In this document: piece by piece, positions 1,964 to 42,379 of the stretch | How positions within the stretch are numbered: the first letter of the stretch is position 1 | How the letters are laid out: every line of letters begins with the position of its first letter | From: Polyangium sp. 15x6 | GTDB taxonomy: Bacteria > Myxococcota_A > Polyangia > Polyangiales > Polyangiaceae | Direction: 5' to 3' | NCBI RefSeq assembly: GCF_029960785.1 | Contig: NZ_JASBQE010000010.1 | Span: 124,001 to 188,000, forward strand | DNA: 64,000 nucleotides | Notes under the pieces: generated by a model | Database searches by the model: none | Told to the model about the DNA's origin: nothing | What the model saw: only the letters and a program-made list of their open reading frames with translations | Position numbers and translations under genes: made by a program

Positions 1964-4900
1964 TCAAACCCGCAACAAGATCGCCGCGCACGCCTCCCCG
2001 GTCGCCCGGGCGATCGCCGTCGCATACAGCGACACCTGCCGCCGATACACGGGCCCCGCGCGGACGATCTCGCGGTCCGTCTTGAAATCCACCACGGTCC
2101 AGCCGTTCGGCTCGCGAAACGCGAGGTCGACGATGCCCTCGATCAGCGTCCCGTCCTCGGCCATCAAGCTGAGCGGCGTCTCTCGCCGGCATTCGCCGCG
2201 CGCCTCGGCCGCGCGCGCCCTCTCGATCACCGGATGAGCGAGCGCGAGGACCACCGCGCGCACGGCCGCTGCCTCCTCGATCTCGGTCGCGCCGAAGAGC
2301 CGCGCCGCGAGCGCCGCCGCCTGCTCCACGACGTCCCGTTCGGCTGAGAGCGGCACCTGCGCGAGCACCGCATGCACGAGCTCGCCGAAGCGAGCTCCCC
2401 CCGGTCGGCCCGCCTCTCGACCGACGTCGAGGATCGGCACGTCGAGCGCGGGCGCTTCGTTCGAGGTCTCGGCCCGCTCGGTGACCGTCTGGACCTTGTA
2501 CAGCGGACGCGCGCCGCGCTCGCGATCGGCCGCGCGCTCCCGGACCCAGCGTCGATACGTCTCGAGGTCCTCTTCCACGCGGCCGACGGGCGCGTCCTTG
2601 CGCAGCATGTCCTCGCGGCGCACGCCGAACGCAGGCTCGCGTTCGAGGTCGAGGCGCGTCACGTCCCACCACACGACGTCGTGCCCCCCGGGCAAACGAT
2701 ATCCGCCCGGACAAACCGTCGCCGGCCCGCGTGAAATCCCCTCGGGCCGCGACAGAACCGTATCGTCGCCGAACGGCGGGCACCCCGGCGCCGCTTCGGC
2801 GGAAGGCACGGAGCCCGAAGGAGGCGCGATCGCCGCGTGGATCGGCCCGATCCACGATTGCTCGGGGAACCGCGGATCGTCGCCCACGGCCGGCACGATG
2901 ACGAGGTCACGCGCGCGGGTTGCAGCCACGTACACGAGCCGCGTGCCTTCGGCCTCGTCGCGGCGCATCTCGAGCGCCTCGTGCTCGACGAGATCCCATG
3001 GCGCGACGCTGCCGAGGCGAAGCGCGCAGAGCGAGCGCGAGGCGTCGACGTAGCGGCTCACGGCTTGCGCGCCGAGACGCGCGGTCACGTCGGCGAGCAC
3101 GACGACCGGGAATTCGAGGCCCTTGGCCCGGTGTGCCGTCATGATGCGCACGCCGTCGCCGCCTTCTTCGAGGATCGGCGCCTCGGGCGCGCGACCACGC
3201 TCTGCGTCCTCTTCCAGCTGCTCGACGAACGCGCGGAACGACGTACCTCCCGAAGCCTCGTACGCGCGCCCGAGCTCGGCGATGTGCAGCACGTTCGCGA
3301 GCGCGCGTTCGCCCGAGGGACGCAGGGCAAACCCCACGCAGGCGCGCGTCGCGTCGCAGAGCTCGGCGACCGTGGTCTCGATCGGCCGCGCGTTCCGCCC
3401 CTCGGAGAGCCGCGCGAGGAGCGAGAGCGCGGCGGCGATCGGCGCGAGGTGCGGCGGGAGCGGTGCTTCGGGGATTCGTTGGTGGTGCAACTTCCCGTAG
3501 GTGAAACGGTATTCGAGCAGCGCCTCGTCCCCGACGGCGAAGAGCGACCCGCGCAGCGTCGCGAAGACCGCGAGCTCGTCCTCGGGCCGCTCGATCGCGC
3601 GGAGCGCCGCGAGCATCGTCTCGACCTCCTCGCGGGCGTAAAACGACTTTCCACCGACGAGCACGTGCGGGATGCCGCGCGCTTCGAGGGCCTCGACGTA
3701 GGCGCGCGTGACGTCCTCGCCGTGGCTCTCGAAGCGCCGGAAGACCAGACAAACGTGCCGCGGCGCGACGGGGACGAGCTCGCCTGGTTGATCCCGCTCG
3801 GTCACCTTCCAGCCGCTCTCGTGCAGGAGCCAATCGAGGTACGCGCCCACCGCGGCCGGCACGCTCTCTTCGACCGCGGCCGAGGTGAGCCGCTGCTTGC
3901 CGTACGGCTCGGGCACGGGCACGCACACGATCGACGGCTGCCCCGCGATCGCCTTGCGCGCGGGCCGGAGCGGCACGTACCGCGCGGAGAGCGCCTCGTG
4001 ATCCCCCACCATCACCGGCGCGAACGCCGTGTTCACGAGCTTCTGGATGCTGGGGACCGATCGGAAGCTCGTGCTGAGCTCCACGAAGAGCGCGCCGCGC
4101 CGGACGACGAGCTCCTTGACCTCCTCGTAAACCGAGAGATCGGCCCGGCGAAACCGGTAGATCGCCTGCTTCGGATCGCCGACGAGGAAGAGCTTCCCGG
4201 GCACGGGCTGCACGTCGCGATACGCGCGGACGCTCGGATCGTCGGCCGCGAGCAGCATGAGGATCTCGGCCTGGAGCGGGTCCGTATCCTGGAACTCGTC
4301 GACGAAGATGCAGCGGTAACGCTCCTGAAAGCCGCGGCGCACCTCGCCCTGATCACGCACGAGGTCCCGCGTGCAGACGAGCAGATCCTCGAAGTCGAGC
4401 GCGCCCACCTCGGCCTTGCGCGCCTGGTACGTCGCGACGAGCGCGCCGAGCTCCTCCTGCAAGAGCGCCGCGAGATCGCCGTCGGCCTCGCGCTGGAATC
4501 GTTCGAGCGAGGCCACGAGCGCGCCGTGCGCTGCGAGCAGATCGGCCCGCGTCGTGTGCGCGCCGTAGCGGGATCCGGCGCCGCGGCGCGGACGCATGAA
4601 GTCGCGCTGCCTGCTGAGCGCGCAGAGCTCGGCCTCGATCTCGTCCCGATCCCAGCGATGCTCGCCCTCAGCGCGCAGGCGCATGACGAGCGCGCGGGCC
4701 GGCTCGGTGTCGCGGTGCAGCGGGTCATTCGCGTGGAGCGCGCCCTCGCTCGCCTCCGCGAACGCGGTCATCTCCGCGAGGATCGCGTCGACGGCGCGAT
4801 CCCGATCGAACGGAGGCCGCTGCCAGCGCGCGGTGAAATGCCGCCAGGCGATGAGCTCCTGCCCGGCGCGGCGCAGTCGCTCGATCGGCCCAGGGCCGTG

Positions 4901-9806: not shown

Positions 9807-11033
9807 TCACCCCTTCACGCACACCACTTGTCGCAGCGTGCGCACGACCTCGACGAGGTCGCGCTGCGCATACATCACATCGTCGATCGACTTGTACGCG
9901 CCGGGCGTCTCGTCGATCACGTCCTCGTCCTTGCGGCACTCGATCCCGGCCGTCATGCGCGCGTGGTCCTCGAGCGAGAACGCCCGCTTCGCCGCCGAGC
10001 GCGACATCTTCCGACCCGCGCCGTGGCTACACGAGCAGAACGACTCGCGGTTTCCCAATCCACGAACGATGAAACTCTTCGCGCCCATGCTCCCGGGAAT
10101 GATCCCGAGCTCGCCCTCGCCTGCGCGCACCGCGCCCTTGCGCGTCACCCACACGTCCTTGCCGTAGTGGTGCTCCTTCGACACGTAGTTGTGGTGGCAG
10201 TTCACGGCCTCGTTCACGAGCTCGAACGGCGGCAAGAGCCCCGTCTTTCGCACAGCCATGATCGTCGCCTCCATCATCAACGCGCGGTTCGTCCGCGCGA
10301 ACTCCTGCGCCCAGGCGAGCGCGCGCCAGTACTGGCCGAACGTCTCGCTCCCATCGGGGATGTAGGCGAGGTCCGCGTTCGGCAGGTTGATGAACCACCG
10401 CTTCATGTCCTTCTTCGCGAGGTCGATGAAGTGGCTCCCGATGCGGTTTCCCACGCCGCGCGAACCCGAGTGCAGCATGAACCATACGTGGTCGCGCTCA
10501 TCGAGGCAGACCTCGATGAAGTGGTTCCCCGTCCCGAGCGTCCCGAGGTGCCCGATCGCCGTCGCGCGCCCGATCGACGGGTTTTCCTTCACGATCGCCT
10601 CGTAGCCGGGCGCGAGCTCTGCCCACGCCTTCTGCACGCGCTCGGGCGCGTCACCCCACGCGCCGCGGTCGCCGGGCCCGCCGTTGTTCGTGCGCCCGTG
10701 CGGCACCGCCGCCTCGATCGCGCTGCGGATCTCCTTCAGGTCGTCGGGGAGCTGCGAGGCCGTGAGCGTCGTCTCCACCGCGATCATCCCGCAGCCGATG
10801 TCCACACCCACCGCCGCCGGGATGATCGCGCCGTTCGTCGCGATCACGCTCCCGACCGTCGCGCCCTTCCCGGCGTGCACGTCGGGCATCACGGCGACCC
10901 ACTTGTGGAGGAAGGGCAGCGTCGCCAGGCGCCGGACCTGCTCTTCGGCCTCGCTCTCGAACGGCACGCCGCGCGTCCAGGCCTTGATCGGCACGCCGTC
11001 GGTCTCGAACGTCTGGTGGGTCGTCTCGCTCAT
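9807..11033 (-). CDS. rtcB: RNA-splicing ligase RtcB
   Basis: A 408-residue RtcB, the usual size. Visible landmarks are MPDVHAGKGATVGSV, GVDIGCGM (metal-binding Cys), FMLHSGSRGVGN and NCHHNYVSKEH (metal-binding His), and CSCSHGAGRKMSR with the nucleophilic His that takes GMP. It joins RNA with 2',3'-cyclic phosphate or 3'-phosphate ends to 5'-OH ends using GTP and Mn2+, typically in tRNA or rRNA repair. It is divergent from rtcR and preceded by a good sigma-54 promoter, the arrangement known for the E. coli and Salmonella rtc systems. Confidence 0.96.
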   Translation of the reverse strand: MSETTHQTFETDGVPIKAWTRGVPFESEAEEQVRRLATLPFLHKWVAVMPDVHAGKGATVGSVIATNGAIIPAAVGVDIGCGMIAVETTLTASQLPDDLKEIRSAIEAAVPHGRTNNGGPGDRGAWGDAPERVQKAWAELAPGYEAIVKENPSIGRATAIGHLGTLGTGNHFIEVCLDERDHVWFMLHSGSRGVGNRIGSHFIDLAKKDMKRWFINLPNADLAYIPDGSETFGQYWRALAWAQEFARTNRALMMEATIMAVRKTGLLPPFELVNEAVNCHHNYVSKEHHYGKDVWVTRKGAVRAGEGELGIIPGSMGAKSFIVRGLGNRESFCSCSHGAGRKMSRSAAKRAFSLEDHARMTAGIECRKDEDVIDETPGAYKSIDDVMYAQRDLVEVVRTLRQVVCVKG

Positions 11034-15779: not shown

Positions 15780-15813
15780 GGATAATCTTTATCCGATGGG
15801 ATAGTACCTCTCC
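15780..15813 (+). promoter_or_regulatory. Tandem inverted-repeat activator site upstream of Y-RNA cluster 1
   Basis: GGATAATCTTTATCC (15780-15794) is a perfect 6-3-6 inverted repeat. After 4 bases a second, weaker copy follows: GGATAGTACCTCTCC (15799-15813). The first repeat is centred ~105 bp upstream of the -24 GG of the sigma-54 promoter, the usual distance of an enhancer-type activator site. The same tandem layout with the same 4-base gap occurs upstream of cluster 2, and a single copy upstream of the YB3-rsr unit. RtcR is the likely binder (inference). Confidence 0.65.
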
Positions 15814-15889: not shown

Positions 15890-15906
15890 CTGGCACGGCG
15901 CCTGCT
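15890..15906 (+). promoter_or_regulatory. Sigma-54 promoter of Y-RNA cluster 1
   Basis: CTGGCACGGCGCCTGCT matches the sigma-54 consensus at all but one position (C for T before TGC), with the -24 GG and -12 GC exactly 10 nt apart. Predicted transcription start near 15916, about 10 nt before the tRNA-like 5' end. Confidence 0.87.
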
Positions 15907-15925
15907 TCAGGCGGAACACGAAGAC

Positions 15926-16050
15926 GCCAGGATAGCTCAGTGGTAGAGCACGTAAAACACCTTGGCCGGTTTTCTCCGGCGACGGCAGTGATGGCCAGGG
16001 TTACTTCCATTTCAAGGACGTGGTCGCGGGTTCGAATCCCGCTCCTGGTA
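15926..16050 (+). ncRNA. Candidate tRNA-mimic Y RNA, copy YA1
   Basis: A 125-nt RNA with all outer parts of a tRNA: acceptor stem GCCAGGA/UCCUGGU (G1-U72 wobble), D arm GCUC-AGUGGUA-GAGC, anticodon-like arm CUUCC-AUUUCAA-GGACG (16004-16020), 5-nt variable loop, T arm GCGGG-UUCGAAU-CCCGC, then A. About 54 nt sit between the D arm and the anticodon-like arm. They fold as stem CCUUGGCC/GGCCAGGG (15960-15967 with 15993-16000), an internal loop GGUUUUCU/CAGUGAU, and CCG-GCGA-CGG with a GNRA tetraloop. The internal loop is shared with the YB RNAs nearby. Bacterial Y RNAs near rsr and rtc genes are known to mimic tRNA; the permuted internal position of the Ro site is the unusual part. CC but not CCA is encoded after the A. 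Confidence 0.82.
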
Positions 16051-16051
16051 C

Positions 16052-16087
16052 CGCGAAGGGTTCGGGTTCCCCCTCGTTCCCTTCGCG
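16052..16087 (+). other. Hairpin between YA1 and YB1
   Basis: CGCGAAGGG and CCCTTCGCG form a perfect 9-bp inverted repeat with an 18-nt loop, placed directly after the tRNA-like RNA and before YB1. The same hairpin occurs in cluster 2. It has no T-run, so it is more likely a processing or spacer element than a terminator. Confidence 0.55.
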
Positions 16088-16092
16088 CGCTA

Positions 16093-16182
16093 GCTCCCCG
16101 GGCAGTGAGGCTCGCGGTTCCTTCGTTTTGGGTACGAATAAAGACCCCGCGGCCAGTTTTCTCCCGGGGAGCGAGCGTTTTT
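16093..16182 (+). ncRNA. Candidate simple Y RNA, copy YB1, with terminator
   Basis: The ends pair perfectly: GCUCCCCGGG (16093-16102) with CCCGGGGAGC (16163-16172). Next comes an internal loop CAGUGA (16103-16108) / AGUUUUCU (16155-16162), then an upper stem GGC-CGCGG/CCGCG-GCC with one bulged U, then a distal hairpin UUCGU/ACGAA. CAGUGA resembles the conserved GUAGUG-type strand of the Ro-binding helix of metazoan Y RNAs. The same core is found in YB2 and YB3. The terminal stem followed by TTTTT at 16178-16182 can act as a Rho-independent terminator of cluster 1. Confidence 0.8.
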
Positions 16183-16226
16183 CGTGCGAGCTGTCTCAAG
16201 AGCTCGCTACAGCGGTGCCCTCGATC

Positions 16227-16631
16227 TCAGTCGTCATCATCACCCCCGTAGTTGCCGCCGCTCTTCGGCGAGCAAGACAACTGGATATTGTAGAACACGT
16301 CCTTGCACTCCGCCACGCGATACGCCCCGGCCTCGGCGTCCGTGCACGAGAACTGCTGGAGCCGCTTCACGCACGCCTCCACATCCACCTTCGGACTGCA
16401 CCCGCCGGCGTCGTTGCACGCGTCGGTCTCGTAGCCGCAGACCTCGGAGTCCTCAACCGGGGGCAGGTTGCTGCATCCTGCGCGCACGCCGTTCACCGCG
16501 TCAACGAGCTTCTGGCAGGCGTCTTTGCCATTGAACTCGTCCTCGTCGCAGCTACAGCCCACGCCGATCAGGGCAGCGAGGGCAAAGGTGAACGTCAGAG
16601 CGAGCGCGCGGGTCAAGTTTTTCATTCGCAT
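16227..16631 (-). CDS. Small Cys-rich lipoprotein
   Basis: A 134-residue protein, MRMKNLTRALALTFTFALAAL then GVGCSC, a lipoprotein signal. The mature part has about ten Cys (KDACQKL, AGCSNLP, EVCGYETDACND, GCSPKV, EACVKRL, FSCTD, AECKD, LSCSP) and a Gly/Asp-rich tail. GGAG lies 5 nt before the first ATG, favouring 16631. Proteins of this type are common and functionally unknown in myxobacteria. Confidence 0.7.
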   Translation of the reverse strand: MRMKNLTRALALTFTFALAALIGVGCSCDEDEFNGKDACQKLVDAVNGVRAGCSNLPPVEDSEVCGYETDACNDAGGCSPKVDVEACVKRLQQFSCTDAEAGAYRVAECKDVFYNIQLSCSPKSGGNYGGDDDD

Positions 16632-16779
16632 TGAAGCTCCTTACCTAAGGCCGGACGAGCCGGTGCGCCGACCCTACCCAAGAAGCCTCCGTCGGTAAAG
16701 CACGGACGCACGAATCCATCGCCGGTCAGGAACACAAGTCCGACCCTCATTTCGACCCCAACCACGCCGGTTCGAACAC

Positions 16780-17563
16780 CTATCCCGGCGTGAGACAGAG
16801 AGCCAAGAGCTCGCTGCGGCTGGCCACGCCGAAATGGCGGTGCAGCGTCTTCACGTAATCGTGCACGGTGTACTGGCTCAGGCCGAGCTCCGCGGCGATC
16901 TGCTTCTCGCTGAGGCCCCGCGCGAGGACGCGCAGCGTTTCCTGCAGGCGCGGGGAGAGGCCTTTCAGCCGCGCGGCGGGCACGCCCGGCGGCTCGTGCA
17001 GGAAGCTGCATTCCTCGTGGAACACCGCGACGAGCTGGCGCTCGCGCTCGGAGAAGGCCCGCTCGCCCCAGGGGCGATGGAGCGAAATGACGCGCGCGGG
17101 CTCCCCGCTGCTTCGATGCATGCTGTAAATGAAATCGTCGCTGTCGCCTGGGCGGCGCAGCTCCTGCACGTGCGCCGAGCCATACCACGCGCGGTCCTCC
17201 ACGAGCTCTGCTCGCGTGAATGTGCAGACGGGCCCCTGCGCCCGCGCCGCGAGCTCGGGCAGTGAAGGGTCCTCCGCCGTCCGCTCCCCCGATTGCACAT
17301 ACGAGCGGAAAAGCTCGCGCGATCTGGAATCCGCGAATCCCACGTCGAGCAGATTCTCGATGGCGATGGCCCCCCGCGCCGCCCGTCACGTGGACGTTGC
17401 TCCACATCCCCACTTTTGCGCCCACCAGCGCACAGAGCCCTTCCAGCGCGTGCCGCCGCTGCGCCTCCGACCCTCGCGGCAAGTCGCGCAGCTCGTGGGT
17501 CAGCCGGAGCAGCCGTCGTAGCTCCTCGACCCGAACCATGTCCCTCGCGTTATCAGCGGGCAT
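16780..17563 (-). CDS. LuxR-family regulator, frameshifted in a six-base G run
   Basis: The N-terminal 64 residues (MPADNARDMVRVEELRR to WSNVHVTGGAGG) and the C-terminal part (from AIENLLDVGFADSRSRELF to the stop at 16780) lie in different frames. The switch falls at the run of six C at 17370-17375 (G on the coding strand); removing one base joins the two into one protein of about 260 residues. The C-terminus is a LuxR-type HTH (GLSPRLQETLRVLARGLSEKQIAAELG, then YTVHDYVKTLHRHFGV). The middle looks like a GAF-type sensor. Either the gene is inactivated, the run is a sequencing error, or it varies in phase. Confidence 0.72.
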
Positions 17564-17705
17564 GCGCGCACCTCGACCGTGCCCGCCGAGTCTACCTCAT
17601 CCGCCAGCGCCGTACCCCCTGTTCTGGGGGATGGGCCCGCGCCGCATCGCCCGCCATGATGCGACTCGTCGGGTGGGGCCACGCCCCGACAAACGAGGAG
17701 GACAT

Positions 17706-18056
17706 ATGCGCAAGCTTCAAGGTCTCATTCTTTCTCTCGCGAGCATCGTGATTCTGACCGCGTGCGGCGCCATTGCGGAGGGCGAGCAAGCCCCCGCCGA
17801 GCAGGACGAAGGTGCGGTGCTGGAAGCGGAACAGGCGCTCTGCGGATTGCCGTCCACCGCGGGGTGCGACGAGCCTGCGGTTCCGGTCCCGGAGGGGACC
17901 CTCTGCGAACTCCCGAACGGCTTCGATTTCAAGTATCACTGCGGCAACAAGGGCACGGCGGGCTGCAGGGTCTTCGACTGCACGGCCGGAGGGACTTGGT
18001 ACACGGCGACGGCCGGCCCCGCCTGCGAAGATCTCGTCGCGCTCTACTGCCATTGA
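17706..18056 (+). CDS. Small Cys-containing lipoprotein
   Basis: A 116-residue protein with a strong ribosome site (GGAGGAC 5 nt before the ATG). The signal peptide MRKLQGLILSLASIVILTACG has a clear lipobox. The mature part is acidic, then contains eight Cys (LCGLPS, GCDEP, TLCELP, YHCGN, GCRVFDC, ACEDL, LYCH), suggesting a disulfide-stabilised small domain. It is divergent from the LuxR-type gene; the intergenic hairpin CCCCC-TGTTCT-GGGGG at 17615-17630 could be an operator. Function unknown. Confidence 0.65.
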   Translation: MRKLQGLILSLASIVILTACGAIAEGEQAPAEQDEGAVLEAEQALCGLPSTAGCDEPAVPVPEGTLCELPNGFDFKYHCGNKGTAGCRVFDCTAGGTWYTATAGPACEDLVALYCH

Positions 18057-18128
18057 CACGCCGCGGCCGCTTCGGGCGAACCTTCGCCCCCGCCCGCTCC
18101 ATGCCCCGCCTCCGCGTATGAGCCTACA

Positions 18129-18162
18129 GGATAGGACTTATCCTCGTGGATAATTCTCCTCC
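18129..18162 (+). promoter_or_regulatory. Tandem inverted-repeat activator site upstream of Y-RNA cluster 2
   Basis: GGATAGGACTTATCC (18129-18143), 4 bases, then GGATAATTCTCCTCC (18148-18162). The first repeat is centred ~104 bp upstream of the -24 GG. Layout, spacing and distance match the site upstream of cluster 1, although most of the sequence between site and promoter has diverged. Confidence 0.62.
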
Positions 18163-18236
18163 CGGGCACCAGGCGTCCTTTCCGACCTGAACCACCAAAT
18201 CCGCTCCAAAACGGGCCTTGCGGGGTCCTGGCCGGC

Positions 18237-18253
18237 TTGGCACGCCGCCTGCT
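18237..18253 (+). promoter_or_regulatory. Sigma-54 promoter of Y-RNA cluster 2
   Basis: TTGGCACGCCGCCTGCT, with the same single deviation from consensus (C before TGC) as the cluster 1 promoter and the same 10-nt spacing of GG and GC. The distance to the tRNA-like 5' end (22 nt from the -12 GC) is within one base of that in cluster 1. Confidence 0.86.
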
Positions 18254-18273
18254 TCAAGGGGAAGCACGAAGAC

Positions 18274-18397
18274 GCCAGGATAGCTCAGTGGTAGAGCACG
18301 TAAAACACCTTGGCCGGTTTTCTCCGGTGACGGCAGTGATGGCCAGGGTTACTTCCATGAAAGGACGTGGTCGCGGGTTCGAATCCCGCTCCTGGTA
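18274..18397 (+). ncRNA. Candidate tRNA-mimic Y RNA, copy YA2
   Basis: Near-identical to YA1 (124 nt). The tetraloop changes from GCGA to GUGA, still a GNRA loop, and the anticodon-like loop is AUGAAA instead of AUUUCAA while the CUUCC/GGACG stem is kept. Acceptor, D arm, T arm, the CCUUGGCC/GGCCAGGG stem and the GGUUUUCU/CAGUGAU internal loop are unchanged. Changes confined to loops argue that the fold is under selection. The RNA is followed by A and encoded CC. Confidence 0.82.
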
Positions 18398-18398
18398 C

Positions 18399-18434
18399 CG
18401 CGAAGGGTTCGGGTTCCCCCTCGTTCCCTTCGCG
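18399..18434 (+). other. Hairpin between YA2 and YB2
   Basis: Same CGCGAAGGG / CCCTTCGCG 9-bp inverted repeat as in cluster 1, at the same place between the tRNA-like and the simple Y RNA. Confidence 0.55.
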
Positions 18435-18439
18435 CGCTA

Positions 18440-18527
18440 GCTCCCCGGGCAGTGAGGCTTGCGGTTCCTTCGTTTAGGGTACGAACAAGACCCCGCGGCC
18501 AATTTTCTCCCGAGGAGCGAGCGTTTT
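18440..18527 (+). ncRNA. Candidate simple Y RNA, copy YB2
   Basis: Terminal stem GCUCCCCGGG (18440-18449) with CCCGAGGAGC (18509-18518), one C-A mismatch. Internal loop CAGUGA / AAUUUUCU. Upper stem GGC-UGCGG/CCGCG-GCC keeps pairing through a U-G. Distal hairpin UUCGU/ACGAA. The T-run after the stem is only TTTT (18524-18527), weaker than in YB1, which fits read-through into YA3 22 bases later. Confidence 0.78.
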
Positions 18528-18548
18528 GGAAACAGAGAGACGATGAAT

Positions 18549-18673
18549 GCCAGGATAGCTCAGGGGTAGAGCGCGAAAAACACCTTGGTCGATATTCTCC
18601 GGCGACGGCAGTGATGATCAGGGTTACTCCGCTGTCAACGGCGAGGCCGCGGGTTCGAGTCCCGCTCCTGGCG
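18549..18673 (+). ncRNA. Candidate tRNA-mimic Y RNA, copy YA3 (diverged)
   Basis: A diverged 125-nt relative of YA1/YA2 that gives covariation evidence. Acceptor GCCAGGA/UCCUGGC now ends in G1-C72. The Ro stem is CCUUGGUC/GAUCAGGG, with a C-G pair replaced by U-A. The anticodon-like arm is CUCCG-CUGUCAA-CGGCG: two pairs change in a compensated way (U-A to C-G, C-G to G-C) and the U-C mismatch at the second position is kept. CCG-GCGA-CGG and CAGUGAU are unchanged. The other loop strand is GAUAUUCU. T arm GCGGG-UUCGAGU-CCCGC. No own promoter is seen, so it should be read from the cluster 2 promoter. Confidence 0.82.
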
Positions 18674-18699: not shown

Positions 18700-18730
18700 G
18701 CCCGATCCCCGAGAATGGGGATCGGGCTTT
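18700..18730 (+). terminator. Terminator of Y-RNA cluster 2
   Basis: GCCCGATCCCC and GGGGATCGGGC form an 11-bp perfect stem with a 6-nt loop, followed by TTT and a T-rich stretch. It lies 26 bases after YA3. Confidence 0.75.
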
Positions 18731-21830: not shown

Positions 21831-23257
21831 AGCTTCGGGCGCGACTCGCGGTCGCCACCATTCTGGTGATGGTCCCGATGACGTTCGCCTTGTTCTGGTA
21901 CGACGGAGCGGCGAGGCATCGGGCCGCGGAGCAGAAGCTCACGGAATTCGTGCTCGGGCAAATGCCCACGGCGCGCGAGGCGTGCGAGGCCGCCCCGTCG
22001 TCGTTCGGGGGCGAACTGCGGCCGAGCCTGCCTCCGGGGCCTCCGCGCGGCGCTCGTCCTCCGCCGGGGCCTCCGCGGCCCCACGGCGCGCGGCCCGCGG
22101 TCGTGCATGCCTACGACGAATCGCTTCATTCGGCGAACCCCGACGCGCCCGTGATCCCCGAGGCGCTCGCGCGCGCCATCCACGAGCAAGACGTCGCCAT
22201 TGCATCGTATGTCTTGCCAACCTCTTCGGTCGAGCTCCTTGCGCGCATGCCCTGGGGCACGGGCCCGTGCGCGTACGTGCTCGCCCGCGGGACGACCGAT
22301 CCGACCTGGGGCGCGGTGCTCCCCGAATCGAACATCTGGCTCCTGCCCACGGTGGCCGTCTTCGCGGCCATGCTCCTCGCCCTGGGCCCGGTGGTCCGGC
22401 GCATTCGCAAGCTCACCGAGGCCGTCCTGCGCTCGGCGTCGGCCACGTACGCGGACGCCGTCCTGATCGAGGGCGACGACGAGATCGGCGTGCTCGCGCG
22501 AGCCTTCAATGCGGCGGGCCGCGAGATTCGATCCCAGCTCGAAGAGAAGGACCGGCGCGAGCAGGCGCTCCGCCATTTCCTGGCCAACACGACGCACGAC
22601 GTGATGATCCCGCTGACGGTGCTGCAGGGTCACCTCGCGACCTTGCGCGAGGACGCGGCCGCGGGAAAACCCGTCGACGTCGGCGCGCTCGTCTCGGCGA
22701 TGGACGAGGCGCATTACATGGCGTCGCTCGTGCACAACCTCGCGGCCACGGCGCGGCTCGAAGCGGCCGACGTAACGCTCCAGCGGTGCGAGGTCGATCT
22801 CGAAGCGCTCGTGAAGCGGGTCGTCGGCCGGCACAGGCCCATTGCGAAACAGCTCGGGGTATCGATCGAGACCGCCGTCCCCGGAGAGCCCGTCACCGTC
22901 TCGGCGGACGTGACGCTCCTCGAACAGGCGATCAGCAACGTCACCTACAACGCCGTCCGTTACAATCGCCCCGGCGGCCACGTCGCGGTCATCCTGGATC
23001 GCGTCGCGAACGAGCTTTTTCGATTGCGCGTGGTCGACGACGGCCCCGGCATCCCGGAGGCCGAGCTTTCACGGCTCGCGGAGCGCGGCTTTCGTGGCAA
23101 CGAGGCGCGCTCGCGTGCTCCGGACGGACAGGGGCTCGGGCTCCACATCACGTACCGCGCCGCGAAGCTGCACGGCTTCCGGCTGACGCTCCGGCCGTCC
23201 GAGTATGGCGGCCTCGAGGTCGAGCTCGAAGGCGAGCTCGATGCTCCTGTAGGATAA
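21827..23257 (+). CDS. Membrane sensor histidine kinase
   Basis: A 476-residue kinase. TM1 at about 8-25, a Pro-rich periplasmic segment (PSLPPGPPRGARPPPGPPRP), and TM2 at about 170-190 (NIWLLPTVAVFAAMLLALGPVV). HAMP-like and helical linker, then the phosphorylatable His257 in NTTHDVMIPLTVLQ (less canonical than HELRTP). The ATPase domain has SNVTYNAVRYNRP (N box), DDGPGIPEAEL and GQGLGLHITYRAAKLHG. It pairs with the upstream response regulator. Its TAA stop lies inside the GGATAA half of the activator site for the YB3-rsr promoter. Confidence 0.9.
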   Translation: MKLRARLAVATILVMVPMTFALFWYDGAARHRAAEQKLTEFVLGQMPTAREACEAAPSSFGGELRPSLPPGPPRGARPPPGPPRPHGARPAVVHAYDESLHSANPDAPVIPEALARAIHEQDVAIASYVLPTSSVELLARMPWGTGPCAYVLARGTTDPTWGAVLPESNIWLLPTVAVFAAMLLALGPVVRRIRKLTEAVLRSASATYADAVLIEGDDEIGVLARAFNAAGREIRSQLEEKDRREQALRHFLANTTHDVMIPLTVLQGHLATLREDAAAGKPVDVGALVSAMDEAHYMASLVHNLAATARLEAADVTLQRCEVDLEALVKRVVGRHRPIAKQLGVSIETAVPGEPVTVSADVTLLEQAISNVTYNAVRYNRPGGHVAVILDRVANELFRLRVVDDGPGIPEAELSRLAERGFRGNEARSRAPDGQGLGLHITYRAAKLHGFRLTLRPSEYGGLEVELEGELDAPVG

Positions 23258-23267
23258 ATCTTTATCC
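23252..23267 (+). promoter_or_regulatory. Inverted-repeat activator site upstream of the YB3-rsr unit
   Basis: GGATAAATCTTTATCC is a perfect 7-2-7 inverted repeat (GGATAAA/TTTATCC) centred ~105 bp upstream of the -24 GG of the sigma-54 promoter at 23362. This is the same motif and distance as at the two Y-RNA clusters. It overlaps the stop codon of the histidine kinase gene. Confidence 0.65.
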
Positions 23268-23361: not shown

Positions 23362-23378
23362 CTGGCACGACCGCTGCA
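23362..23378 (+). promoter_or_regulatory. Sigma-54 promoter of the YB3-rsr unit
   Basis: CTGGCACGACCGCTGCA fits YTGGCACG-N4-TTGCW with one deviation (C before TGC) and correct 10-nt GG-GC spacing. Predicted start near 23389, about 30 nt upstream of YB3. Confidence 0.85.
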
Positions 23379-23418
23379 ATGCCCTCTCCCCGAGCACCCT
23401 CCTCGCGAGGGCCGCTCC

Positions 23419-23512
23419 CCCGAGCCCCGGGCAGTGAGGGCGGCGGTTCCTTCGATTTCAACGAAACAAACCCGCCGCCCATGGTCCTCCCGGGCTCCTC
23501 GGGCGTTTTTTT
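23419..23512 (+). ncRNA. Candidate simple Y RNA, copy YB3, with terminator, upstream of rsr
   Basis: Same fold as YB1 with much sequence change. Terminal stem CCCGAG/CUCGGG then CCCGGG/CCCGGG with small bulges; internal loop CAGUGA / AUGGUCCU; upper stem GGGCGGCGG/CCGCCGCCC (9 perfect pairs, replacing the shorter stem of YB1); distal hairpin UUCG-AUUUCAA-CGAA. The terminal stem is followed by seven T (23506-23512), a strong Rho-independent terminator shape placed 44 bases before the rsr ATG. Expression of rsr would need read-through or another promoter. Confidence 0.8.
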
Positions 23513-23556: not shown

Positions 23557-25191
23557 ATGGCGTTTTTCAGCTTCATCAAGAAGGAGAAGGCTCGCGCGAA
23601 GGCAGCGTCGCAGACGCCCCCGGCCTCGGGGCACCTGAATTTCATGGCCGGCGTGTCGTACGACCTCTCGTCGCCGCTCCTGCGCCTCCGCCTCGCGGCG
23701 TCGACGTGCTTCTTCGGCGAGCCGATGTATTACCATCGTGACGAGAAGGACGCGCGTCCCGTGAAGGCCGCGGCGAGCTCGTGCCGGCTGTCGAACAAGG
23801 AGGTCGATTATCTGCGCGCGACGCTCGACGCGGTCGACCCGCAGGCGTGGCGCAAGATGTCGCCCGCGGAGCTCATCGAGAGCGCGATCGACGAGGCGCT
23901 CGATCACGACGCCGAGGCGACGCTCGAGGAGGCGGCGCGATTGCGCAACGAGGAGCATATCCGCACGACGCCGCAGGTCATCCTCGTGCGCGCGGCGAAC
24001 CACCGCGCCGTGAAGGGCACGGGCCTCGTGCGCAAGTATGCGCCGCGCATCGTGAAGCGCGCGGACGAGCCGGCGGTCGGCCTCGCGTACCAGATGTTCC
24101 GGTACGGCAAGCCGATCCCGAATGCGCTGAAGAAGGCGTGGCGTGACGCGATCACGCGCTTCGATACGTACGGGCTCGCGAAGTACCGGCTCGAGGACCA
24201 CGCGGCGAAGACCGTGGACGTCGTGAACCTCGTGCACCCGAAGAGCGAGGCGGTTCATAAGCTCGTGAAGGGCGAGGCGAAGAACACGGGCCGCACGTGG
24301 GAGGCGATCGTGAGCGCGCGCGGCTCGAACCGCACGGCGTGGAAGAAGGCGATGGCGGTCATGGGCCACATGGCGATGCTGCGGAATCTCCGCAACATGC
24401 TGGAGGCGGGTATCAAGGCGGATGAGATCGTTCCGTCGCTCCTCGCGGGCGCGAAGGACGGCAAGCAATTGCCTTTCCGCTACTTCTCGGCCTACAAGGC
24501 CGTGGAGAACAAGGCGCCGGGGCCGCTGCTCGACGCGATCGAGAAGTGCCTCGTCACGTCGCTCGGTGAATTGCCCCATTTCCGCGGCCGCGTGATGGTG
24601 CTCGCGGACAACAGCGGCTCGGCGCAGGGGACGACGACGAGCGCGATGGGCACGATGAAGGTCTCGACGATCGGCAACCTGACGGGCGTGCTCGCGGGTA
24701 TGCGCGCGGACGAGGGTCACCTCGGCGTGTTCGGTGACAAGCTGGAGACGTTCGCGATCCGCAAGGGCGCGTCGATCTTCGATCAATTGAAGCGCGCCGA
24801 GGGGCTCGCGAAGGACATCGGTCAGTCCACGGAGAATGGTATCTGGCTCTTCCTCGACCGGGCGATCCGGATGAAGGAGCACTGGGACTCGATCTTCGTG
24901 ATGAGCGACATGCAGGCGGGCCACGGCGGGCTGTACGGTACGAACAAGGCGCATTACCGCGAGTACGGCTGGGGCGCGGGCGGGCAATACATCGACGTGG
25001 CGAAGCTCGTGTCGACGTATCGCAAGCGCGTGAACCCGAACGTGAAGGTGTTCTTGGTGCAGATCGCGGGCTACAAGGACACGCTCGTGCCGGAGTTCTA
25101 CGACCGTACGTACATCCTCGGCGGCTGGGGCGAGGGCCTGCTCCGCTTCGCCGCGGAGATGGAAAAGGCCTCCTCCGGGAAGGCGGCGTGA
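23557..25191 (+). CDS. rsr: Ro60 orthologue Rsr (TROVE and vWA domains)
   Basis: A 544-residue Ro60 family protein. Residues ~25-340 are the helical TROVE ring (HLNFMAGVSYDLSSPLLRLRLAASTCFFGE, VDYLRATLDAVDP, TGLVRKYAPRIVKRADEPA, NGIWLFLDRA further on). A vWA domain follows, with an intact MIDAS sequence DNSGS at 351-355 (VLADNSGSAQG) and VMSDMQAG. In bacteria Rsr binds Y RNAs and can work with PNPase in RNA decay or rRNA maturation. The ATG at 23557 is chosen because the frame upstream is the Y-RNA leader. The adjacent Y RNA and the sigma-54 promoter with activator site tie it to rtcBA and rtcR. Confidence 0.95.
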   Translation: MAFFSFIKKEKARAKAASQTPPASGHLNFMAGVSYDLSSPLLRLRLAASTCFFGEPMYYHRDEKDARPVKAAASSCRLSNKEVDYLRATLDAVDPQAWRKMSPAELIESAIDEALDHDAEATLEEAARLRNEEHIRTTPQVILVRAANHRAVKGTGLVRKYAPRIVKRADEPAVGLAYQMFRYGKPIPNALKKAWRDAITRFDTYGLAKYRLEDHAAKTVDVVNLVHPKSEAVHKLVKGEAKNTGRTWEAIVSARGSNRTAWKKAMAVMGHMAMLRNLRNMLEAGIKADEIVPSLLAGAKDGKQLPFRYFSAYKAVENKAPGPLLDAIEKCLVTSLGELPHFRGRVMVLADNSGSAQGTTTSAMGTMKVSTIGNLTGVLAGMRADEGHLGVFGDKLETFAIRKGASIFDQLKRAEGLAKDIGQSTENGIWLFLDRAIRMKEHWDSIFVMSDMQAGHGGLYGTNKAHYREYGWGAGGQYIDVAKLVSTYRKRVNPNVKVFLVQIAGYKDTLVPEFYDRTYILGGWGEGLLRFAAEMEKASSGKAA

Positions 25192-37640: not shown

Positions 37641-37723
37641 GCCGAAGTGGCGGAATGGCAAACGCGGTGGATTCAAAATCCACTGTCCTCACGGGCTTGT
37701 GGGTTCGAGTCCCACCTTCGGTA
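37641..37723 (+). tRNA. tRNA-Leu(CAA)
   Basis: An 83-nt class II tRNA. Acceptor GCCGAAG/CUUCGGU with G1-U72, D stem GCG/CGC, anticodon arm GUGGA-UUCAAAA-UCCAC with anticodon CAA at 37674-37676, long variable arm (TGTCCTCACGGGCTT), T arm GUGGG-UUCGAGU-CCCAC, discriminator A. CC but not A of the CCA end is encoded. It reads UUG codons, which are rare in this GC-rich genome. Confidence 0.95.
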
Positions 37724-37798
37724 CCGAGTTCGTCGCCGCAAAGCAGGCAGTAGCAGCGCGAAGAGGCGAGTTTGAAGCGGGCAAGGGCGCGTTCGGGG

Positions 37799-42054: not shown

Positions 42055-42230
42055 GGTGCGCCGGCTACCACGCGCCCCGACCTCGCGCGAACGAAAAGTG
42101 GCCCCGCGCGCCGAACGAGCAGGGACGTTCGACCGCGCCCGAAGCGCAGCCCGATCTTTTTTCGGACGGGCGCTCGACAGGCGCGTTTCGATGAAGTACG
42201 ACTGTGGCCGTTCGGGACTCGTCCCGTTGT

Positions 42231-42313
<83 letters not shown>

Positions 42314-42379
42314 GCTTTTTGTCCTCGGAAGTCCCGCGGGGGTTGCTCTCCCGACGCTTGGCCGTACGCTACGGTCGTC

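What the first reader, a model, noticed from the sequence alone, without database searches (positions are those of the whole stretch)
15926..18673. Three tRNA-shaped Y RNAs with the Ro site inserted between the D arm and the anticodon-like arm
YA1 (15926-16050), YA2 (18274-18397) and YA3 (18549-18673) have complete acceptor, D and T arms and an anticodon-like arm (5 positions with the second pair mismatched). A ~54-nt insert folds as stem, internal loop, CCG-GNRA-CGG. Copy differences support it: C-G to U-A in the inner stem, U-A to C-G and C-G to G-C in the anticodon-like stem, GCGA to GUGA in the tetraloop. tRNA mimicry by bacterial Y RNAs is established; this position, and the capping of the Ro helix by a GNRA loop, may be new.
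Basis: partly seen in the sequence, partly recalled or inferred. Interest (0 to 1): 0.92.

Follow-up and report, generated by a model that had tools for sequence, protein, structure and literature searches.

The report
Y RNAs built like intact tRNAs
A soil bacterium makes three small RNAs shaped like a complete transfer RNA with an extra hairpin, probably the docking site for the Ro60-like protein encoded nearby, and the same design turns up beside Ro60-family genes in many other bacteria, where the known bacterial Y RNA has the same parts in a rotated order.

Summary
The three RNAs are real: acceptor, D, anticodon-like and T arms, with a 54-nt hairpin between the D and anticodon-like arms. 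They lie between rtcB/rtcR and a divergent TROVE (Ro60-family) gene. YA1, YA2 and that gene each have a sigma-54-type promoter with a palindrome 109-111 bp upstream, a pair found only three times in the 13.4-Mb genome. A strict scan finds this un-permuted order in 30 of 80 named TROVE loci and the rotated, YrlA-like order in 29 (3 have both, 24 neither); 0 in 3.1 Mb shuffled and 0.4 Mb other DNA. On 51 selected relatives 23 of 29 pairs change on both sides. Among 235 genomes, insert-length matches occur in 10, all among the 18 with TROVE. The published bacterial Y RNA structure is a circularly permuted tRNA mimic (PMC11472068, passages); these are the same parts in native tRNA order, and a Ro60-family tree needs at least five switches of order. 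The GNRA cap is not conserved, and the window inserts lack the classical Ro60 core, so binding to the window's TROVE protein is inferred. New variant of a known kind; key primary papers could not be read.

The parts
15926..16050 (+). YA1, native-order tRNA-like RNA: acceptor 15926-15932/16043-16049, D arm 15935-15949, insert 15950-16003, anticodon-like arm 16004-16020, T arm 16026-16042
   Evidence: (R2 75.0 bits)
15950..16003 (+). YA1 insert (proposed TROVE-binding hairpin): outer helix 15960-15967/15993-16000, inner helix 15977-15979/15984-15986, GCGA cap
18274..18397 (+). YA2, native-order tRNA-like RNA
   Evidence: 76.1 bits
18549..18673 (+). YA3, native-order tRNA-like RNA without a promoter/box pair of its own, 151 nt after YA2
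   Evidence: (73.8 bits)
15891..15907 (+). sigma-54-type promoter of YA1 (TGGCACN6TGCTT), ends 18 nt before YA1
18238..18254 (+). sigma-54-type promoter of YA2, ends 19 nt before YA2
23363..23379 (+). sigma-54-type promoter upstream of the TROVE gene (TGGCACN6TGCAA; 2 mismatches to the YA1/YA2 pattern)
15780..15794 (+). palindrome GGATAATCTTTATCC, proposed RtcR site, 111 bp upstream of the YA1 promoter
18129..18143 (+). palindrome-like GGATAGGACTTATCC, 109 bp upstream of the YA2 promoter
23252..23267 (+). palindrome GGATAAATCTTTATCC, 111 bp upstream of the promoter of the TROVE gene
16084..16180 (+). E1: hairpin RNA element whose terminal stem holds the insert's loop with the strands in opposite order; ends in a T run
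18431..18525 (+). E2, same element between YA2 and YA3
23413..23510 (+). E3, same element in the presumed leader of the TROVE mRNA (fold weak: z -1.62)
18700..18727 (+). 12-bp terminator-like stem after YA3 (the scan's total of 3 is near the 2.3 expected by chance)
23557..25191 (+). TROVE gene (divergent Rsr), 544 aa
11188..12816 (+). rtcR (CARF plus sigma-54 activator domains)
9807..11033 (-). rtcB, RNA ligase

Best explanation
YA1-3 are Y RNAs of the locus's own TROVE protein in native tRNA order: the RNA begins and ends in an open acceptor stem and carries, in order, D arm, protein-binding hairpin, anticodon-like arm and T arm. They are the circularly rotated counterpart of the YrlA-type Y RNA, whose ends lie in the Ro stem and whose acceptor is closed by a loop. 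Proposed working: broken tRNAs activate RtcR, which with sigma-54 switches on Y RNAs and TROVE gene together; the insert docks on the TROVE ring and the tRNA body either recruits a tRNA-recognising partner (nuclease, modification or repair enzyme) or decoys the tRNA-cutting enzyme. Shown here by sequence: anatomy, covariation, co-occurrence with TROVE, rotation relative to YrlA, shared promoter/palindrome pair. Inferred: transcript ends, TROVE binding, RtcR binding, partner and decoy roles.
For: R2, built from 51 RNAs that do not include the window's, scores YA1-3 at 73.8-76.1 bits; ordinary tRNAs in the ten held sources reach at most 57.4, and 60-68 in whole genomes. A4: 93.4% of cells paired against 74.9% in shuffles (0/500 as high), 23 of 29 pairs with two-sided change, 38-49% when slid. 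A5: acceptor 4 of 7 and outer insert helix 4 of 8 pairs with two-sided change. Native order in 30 of 80 named TROVE loci (27 alone, 3 with permuted), 16 of 80 viral TROVE loci; 0 in 3.13 Mb shuffled and 0.4 Mb other DNA at looser thresholds. Insert-length matches in 10 of 235 phylum genomes, all among the 18 with TROVE (Fisher 3.8e-13, genomes not independent), and in 11 of 59 relatives, all among the 19 with TROVE. Promoter/palindrome pair: 3 in the own genome, 9 in 5 of 6 genus genomes, each at a Y RNA or TROVE promoter; reversed control 1. The loop recurs in E1-E3. GRUUAYC precedes the T arm in 34 of 35 permuted loci; GGUUAYC is in 39 of 51 native RNAs. The promoters end 18-19 nt before the acceptor strand, as native order requires.
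Against: No expression or binding data. The window inserts have GCAGUGA/UUCUC instead of the GGNCCG core of the relatives. A4 was drawn from matches to the window model, and 14 of the 53 matches shown were dropped by eye, mostly for unpaired acceptors or readings between permuted units; a count on such a set leans to the structure. In A5 the inner helix scored 7% because the alignment splits it. Whole-genome searches scored only the best 14 (phylum) or 59 (relatives) first-look candidates per genome, so absences are not proven. YA2 and YA3 acceptors also pair across units, 7/7, so acceptor pairing fixes the order only for the lone YA1. One native RNA (L057) lies about 160 kb from its genome's TROVE gene. 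The sigma-54 pattern alone is weak: 14 matches with up to 2 mismatches against 7.7 expected.
Confidence: 0.8

Rival explanations
1. They are tRNA genes whose insert is an intron or spacer, cut out and resealed by the neighbouring RtcB ligase to give an ordinary tRNA.
For: All tRNA arms are present and in order; rtcB is nearby; the anticodon-like loop of YA3 is 7 nt with U at its second position.
Against: The second pair of the anticodon-like stem is mismatched in 14 of 14 copies; the loop is 6 nt in YA2 and several relatives and its middle letters vary; no CCA follows; the insert has its own covarying helix and invariant loop letters; matches of this kind were found only in TROVE genomes.
Confidence: 0.06
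2. They are tRNA decoys or sensors for tRNA-cutting enzymes that act without binding the TROVE protein; the insert serves stability only.
For: Control together with rtcR and an RNA-repair locus; the decoy idea was raised for YrlA's tRNA-like domain (PMC7790460, passage); the classical Ro60 core is missing from the window inserts.
Against: The TROVE gene has the same promoter/palindrome pair, the loop recurs in E3 ahead of the TROVE gene, and the class follows TROVE genes in other phyla and phages.
Confidence: 0.1
3. The native order is a reading artefact between tandem permuted (YrlA-type) units.
For: In Verrucomicrobia loci (for example L143, L138) Rfam's tRNA model and R1 match just such stretches between permuted units; tandem units occur, and 7 of 18 neighbouring native pairs would also pair 7/7 across units, among them YA2/YA3.
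Against: YA1 stands alone with its promoter 18 nt upstream; no permuted unit is found in the window; in native tandems with spacers up to 21 nt the acceptors pair 7/7 within units and 3-6 across (6 pairs); in permuted tandems the native reading gives 2-5 in 6 of 7 pairs, 7 in L186.
Confidence: 0.03

Closest known systems
YrlA (Rfam RF02553), tRNA-mimicking bacterial Y RNA; structure 6CU1
   Same: T, D and acceptor arms plus a TROVE-binding stem, beside a TROVE gene; same module neighbours when read as a circle
   Different: YrlA's ends lie in the Ro stem and its acceptor is closed; here the acceptor is open and the Ro stem is capped. Rfam's YrlA model does not reach its cut-off on the window RNAs or on the 12 loci tested at gathering
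Salmonella rsr-yrlBA-rtcBA RNA-repair operon under RtcR (PMC7790460, passages)
   Same: TROVE gene, Y RNAs and rtcB with an adjacent rtcR; RtcR is a sigma-54 activator
   Different: Separate transcription units about 13 kb apart instead of one operon; Y RNAs in native order; rtcA was not looked for
Vertebrate Y RNA / Ro60
   Same: Native-order RNAs beside Ro60-type genes carry GGNCYG (47 of 51), GGNCCGA in 21 of 51, like GGUCCGA (PMC11277228, passage)
   Different: No tRNA body; window inserts lack the core; the window's protein finds no Ro60 chain at E up to 1 by phmmer
tRNA
   Same: Arms and strand order
   Different: 54-nt insert, mismatched anticodon-like stem, no encoded CCA, not called by ARAGORN

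Membership tests
Bacterial Y RNA (RNA partner of a Ro60/TROVE protein) | encoded close to a TROVE gene | tested here: met
   Window: YA3 ends 4.9 kb before the TROVE gene; relatives: 49 of 162 labelled TROVE genes have a native-order RNA within 2.5 kb, 35 a permuted one, 78 neither
Bacterial Y RNA (RNA partner of a Ro60/TROVE protein) | tRNA-like domain | tested here: met
Bacterial Y RNA (RNA partner of a Ro60/TROVE protein) | bound by the TROVE protein in the cell | not testable with these tools
   no binding data
Bacterial Y RNA (RNA partner of a Ro60/TROVE protein) | Ro60 core sequence GGUCCGA or near form in the protein-binding stem | tested here: not met
   Window type has GCAGUGA/UUCUC in 14 of 14; GGNCYG in 47 of 51 relatives beside Ro60-type genes. 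Core described for vertebrate Y RNAs; the window's TROVE protein is of another clade
YrlA (RF02553) as described: large stem formed by the RNA's own 5' and 3' ends plus tRNA-like domain | 5' and 3' ends pair to form the protein-binding stem | tested here: not met
   Ends pair as an acceptor stem; the hairpin is internal. Definition from PMC8394870, passage
YrlA (RF02553) as described: large stem formed by the RNA's own 5' and 3' ends plus tRNA-like domain | score over Rfam's gathering cut-off | tested here: not met
   best match 16.8 bits against 69, partial
tRNA | regular anticodon arm directly after the D arm, recognised by a tRNA gene finder | tested here: not met
   insert of 54 nt, mismatched stem, no ARAGORN call
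RtcR regulon | sigma-54-type promoter with a fixed-distance upstream palindrome, rtcR nearby | tested here: met
   that RtcR binds the palindrome is untested

The most novel reading that the evidence does not exclude
Ro60-family proteins in at least eight phyla (by record titles) and in phages use one tRNA-mimicking RNA that exists in two circular orders, native tRNA order and YrlA order, exchanged at least five times. The native order leaves a free acceptor end, so tRNA end processing, CCA addition or even charging could act on a Ro60-bound RNA; in tRNA arrays, cutting of the neighbouring tRNAs may supply the ends of either form.
Probability: 0.55. Interest if true: 0.88.

Novelty: new variant of a known kind. 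Interest (0 to 1): 0.8.

Why it matters
In the passages I could read, bacterial Y RNAs are described as a stem made by the RNA's own two ends plus a tRNA-like domain (PMC8394870). A second, un-permuted order, which standard annotation files as tRNA or misses, would enlarge the set of Ro60 RNAs and give a natural series in which one RNA was circularly permuted several times. The open acceptor end makes an old question testable: why do Ro60 partners mimic tRNA, and do tRNA enzymes act on them? The window also ties these RNAs and their TROVE gene to a likely tRNA-damage switch (RtcR) in a myxobacterium.

Tried and rejected
Model R1 (three window copies) was too tRNA-like for genome searches: 58 of 59 genomes matched, largely with ordinary tRNAs, and its 171-190-nt matches in G043, G050, G056, G034 and G028 were pairs of adjacent tRNAs. 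It was replaced by R2. The GNRA cap as a defining feature was rejected. Intron and tandem-artefact readings: see rivals. A scan for the anticodon-like arm without an anchor was inconclusive: in 65 RNAs the second pair alone was mismatched in 17, other patterns in 41, no arm in 7, and it mis-registered the window's own YA1; so this arm is established only for the window type. Trees were quick ones; the 23-protein tree warns of long branches, so the relation of the window's TROVE clade to the YrlA-associated clade is open. A third model slot, structure prediction and fold search were not used.

Literature: ten searches listed no paper on a native-order Y RNA. PMC4201824, PMC6281776, PMC6047535 and PMC10870794, the likely places for a prior description, are not held. 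For PMC7790460, PMC8394870, PMC11472068, PMC9569102, PMC7824862, PMC4702372, PMC4726728 and PMC11277228 I saw passages only.

Own errors and dropped rows: one search used wrong frames (redone); one search chose wrong frames for some TROVE genes (only clear ones were used; all redone); one search used a misplaced structure string and showed no support (redone with a computed string). Of 53 R1 matches shown, 14 were left out of A4 by eye. One search dropped permuted hits that overlap a native unit or share a T arm with an ordinary tRNA, so its '0 both' is partly by rule; 12 of 174 loci gave no usable protein. The scanner misses some true cases (YrlA matches in L068-L070).
Full report
WHAT IS THERE. 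The window holds rtcB (minus strand), rtcR (plus), three tRNA-like RNAs and a TROVE gene. The genus is very likely Polyangium: two genus mates lie on contigs of the same length as records of Polyangium sp. 6x1 and y55x31. A scanner asking for a D arm (4/4), a T arm (at least 4/5) and an acceptor (at least 6/7), written after seeing these RNAs, returns only these three in 64 kb. A DNA search of the genome finds these three copies; model R1 adds one distant copy on contig C242.

ANATOMY. Order: acceptor 5' strand, D arm, linker, insert hairpin, UUA, anticodon-like arm, linker, T arm, acceptor 3' strand. The insert has an outer 8-bp helix, an internal loop and a 3-bp inner helix with a tetraloop. 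In 14 window-type copies from 8 genomes UUCUC and GCAGUGA are invariant. On that alignment 87.5% of cells pair (shuffles 81.7%, 0 of 500 as high); 10 of 32 pairs change on both sides; the inner helix scores only 7% because the alignment splits it. The second pair of the anticodon-like stem is mismatched in all 14. The GNRA cap holds only within the genus.

TRANSCRIPTION. Sigma-54-type promoters end 18 and 19 nt before YA1 and YA2, so the transcripts should begin just before the acceptor strand (inference). A palindrome GGATA..TATCC lies 111, 109 and 111 bp upstream of the promoters of YA1, YA2 and the TROVE gene. The composite pattern occurs 3 times in this genome and 9 times in 5 of 6 genus genomes, each at a Y RNA or TROVE promoter; one genome (G002) has no exact match, and the reversed control pattern occurs once. 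RtcR, a sigma-54 activator, is encoded in the window and is the natural candidate to bind the palindrome (inference). [quoted passage not shown] YA3 has no such pair and lies 151 nt after YA2.

E ELEMENTS. After YA1 and YA2, and between promoter and start codon of the TROVE gene, lies a ~95-nt hairpin whose terminal stem holds the same loop with the strands in opposite order (GGGCAGUGA first, UUUUCUCCC or a variant last); 13 copies from the genus align, GGGCAGUGA being invariant. Folds of E1 and E2 with their upstream hairpin are strong (z -4.63, -3.12), that of E3 is not (z -1.62). The recurrence is the best local argument that this loop is a protein site.

RELATIVES. A scan of named genomes with a TROVE alignment built from members of this order kept the best 80 of 337 relatives. 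Strict thresholds (7/7 acceptor, gap 60-90) give 27 loci with native-order RNAs only, 26 with permuted only, 3 with both, 24 with neither; looser thresholds give 0 of either kind in 3.13 Mb of shuffles and in 400 kb of other Polyangium DNA. Of 80 viral loci (best 80 of 222) 16 have native, 10 permuted, 54 neither. By record titles native-order loci fall in Myxococcota, Chloroflexota, Abditibacteriota, Armatimonadota, Gemmatimonadota, Pseudomonadota, Planctomycetota and Actinomycetota; many are metagenome bins, so single assignments may be wrong.

COVARIATION AND SPECIFICITY. For 51 native-order RNAs near Ro60-type genes (A4; selection described under Tried and rejected) 93.4% of cells pair (shuffles 74.9%, 0 of 500 as high), 23 of 29 pairs change on both sides, all 7 acceptor and all 9 insert-helix pairs among them, and sliding one strand lowers pairing to 38-49%. 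Model R2 from these rows gives the window RNAs 73.8-76.1 bits; they were not among the rows. Ordinary tRNAs reach at most 57.4 bits in the ten sources. In 235 genomes of the phylum 74 match at E up to 1e-12: 10 with insert-length matches of at least 70 bits, all among the 18 genomes with TROVE, and 64 only with 73-75-nt matches of 60-68 bits, that is, tRNAs. In 59 relatives 16 match: 11 with insert-length matches, all among 19 TROVE genomes, 5 only with tRNA-length ones. Many positive genomes supplied training rows; G132 (two matches), further copies in G082 and G261, G008, G041 and the window did not. Only the best 14 or 59 first-look candidates per genome were scored, so absence is not proven.

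SAME PARTS, ROTATED. YrlA-type RNAs of this order read Ro strand, GACUACAUC-like linker, T arm, acceptor, loop, acceptor, D arm, Ro strand. Opened at the acceptor loop and closed at the Ro stem, that is the window's order. Permuted RNAs beside Ro60-type genes share the linker: GRUUAYC within 45 nt before the T arm in 34 of 35 loci, GGUUAYC in 39 of 51 native RNAs; GGNCYG occurs in 47 of 51 native RNAs, both motif strands in strict form and order in 31 of 51 (0.02 expected per RNA from control DNA), and both in loose form in 23 of 35 permuted loci. GGUCCGA is described as the conserved Ro60 sequence of vertebrate Y RNAs (PMC11277228, passage). That the Y RNA structure 6CU1 is circularly permuted relative to tRNA is published (PMC11472068, passages). 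A Mycobacterium phage Y RNA region reads permuted with 6/7 acceptor pairs. On a quick tree of 80 Ro60-type proteins the RNA order needs 7 changes, at least 5 forced by well-supported branches, against 25.6 in shuffles. Tandem duplication and a shift of register is a plausible route (inference).

TWO SYSTEMS IN ONE GENOME. A second TROVE gene lies on contig C242 inside an array of 26 ARAGORN tRNAs in 15 kb with its own native-order RNA. Its G008 relative matches human RO60 at E 3.7e-127. The window's protein matches only two TROVE chains (9kop, 9l5y; E 6e-14) and no Ro60 chain at E up to 1, and forms a clade with G001, G003, G004, G023 and G041. The insert loops differ in step with the proteins, which fits co-evolution but is no binding test.

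VERDICT. Observation confirmed; interpretation right in its core, too narrow in scope, wrong on the cap. Best explanation at 0.8; partner and decoy steps are inference. Novelty is limited by papers that I could not read.

Noticed in passing
L043 (G000:C242:25000-40000); also L046, L048, L050, L052, L056, L065, L066, L069, L070, L072, L080: TROVE genes of these genomes lie inside dense tRNA arrays (13 to 35 ARAGORN tRNAs per stretch); 36 of 80 named TROVE loci have at least 5 tRNAs, 12 of 80 viral ones. No paper with both 'tRNA array' and 'Ro60' was listed.
   Followed up: partly
L065 6936-7051, L066 6137-6250, L069 7050-7164, L070 6692-6813: YrlA-type RNAs abut tRNA genes with 0-3 nt between on at least one side, so cutting of the neighbouring tRNAs could make the Y RNA ends.
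   Followed up: no
window 16052-16087 and 18399-18434: A strong GC-rich hairpin without a T run lies between YA1 and E1 and between YA2 and E2, perhaps a processing signal.
   Followed up: no
L143 1899-1969, L138 7862-7934: Rfam's nematode sRNA family ceN72-3_ceN74-2 (RF01656) scores above its gathering cut-off beside Verrucomicrobia TROVE genes (44.9 and 39.4 bits against 38).
   Followed up: no
L143, L142, L149, L155, L161, L186: Permuted Y RNA units stand in tandem, so that a tRNA-like reading appears between them: a possible intermediate for circular permutation.
   Followed up: partly
L317 (Mycobacterium phage Alice NC_028986.1), 3540-3990: Annotated small ORFs gp218 and gp219 overlap a stretch that folds as permuted Y RNA upstream of the Ro-like gene; 341 phage records hold a TROVE relative.
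   Followed up: partly
window 42228-42315 and 37641-37725: Small SRP RNA (54 bits) and a tRNA-Leu (CAA) gene lie elsewhere in the window.
   Followed up: no
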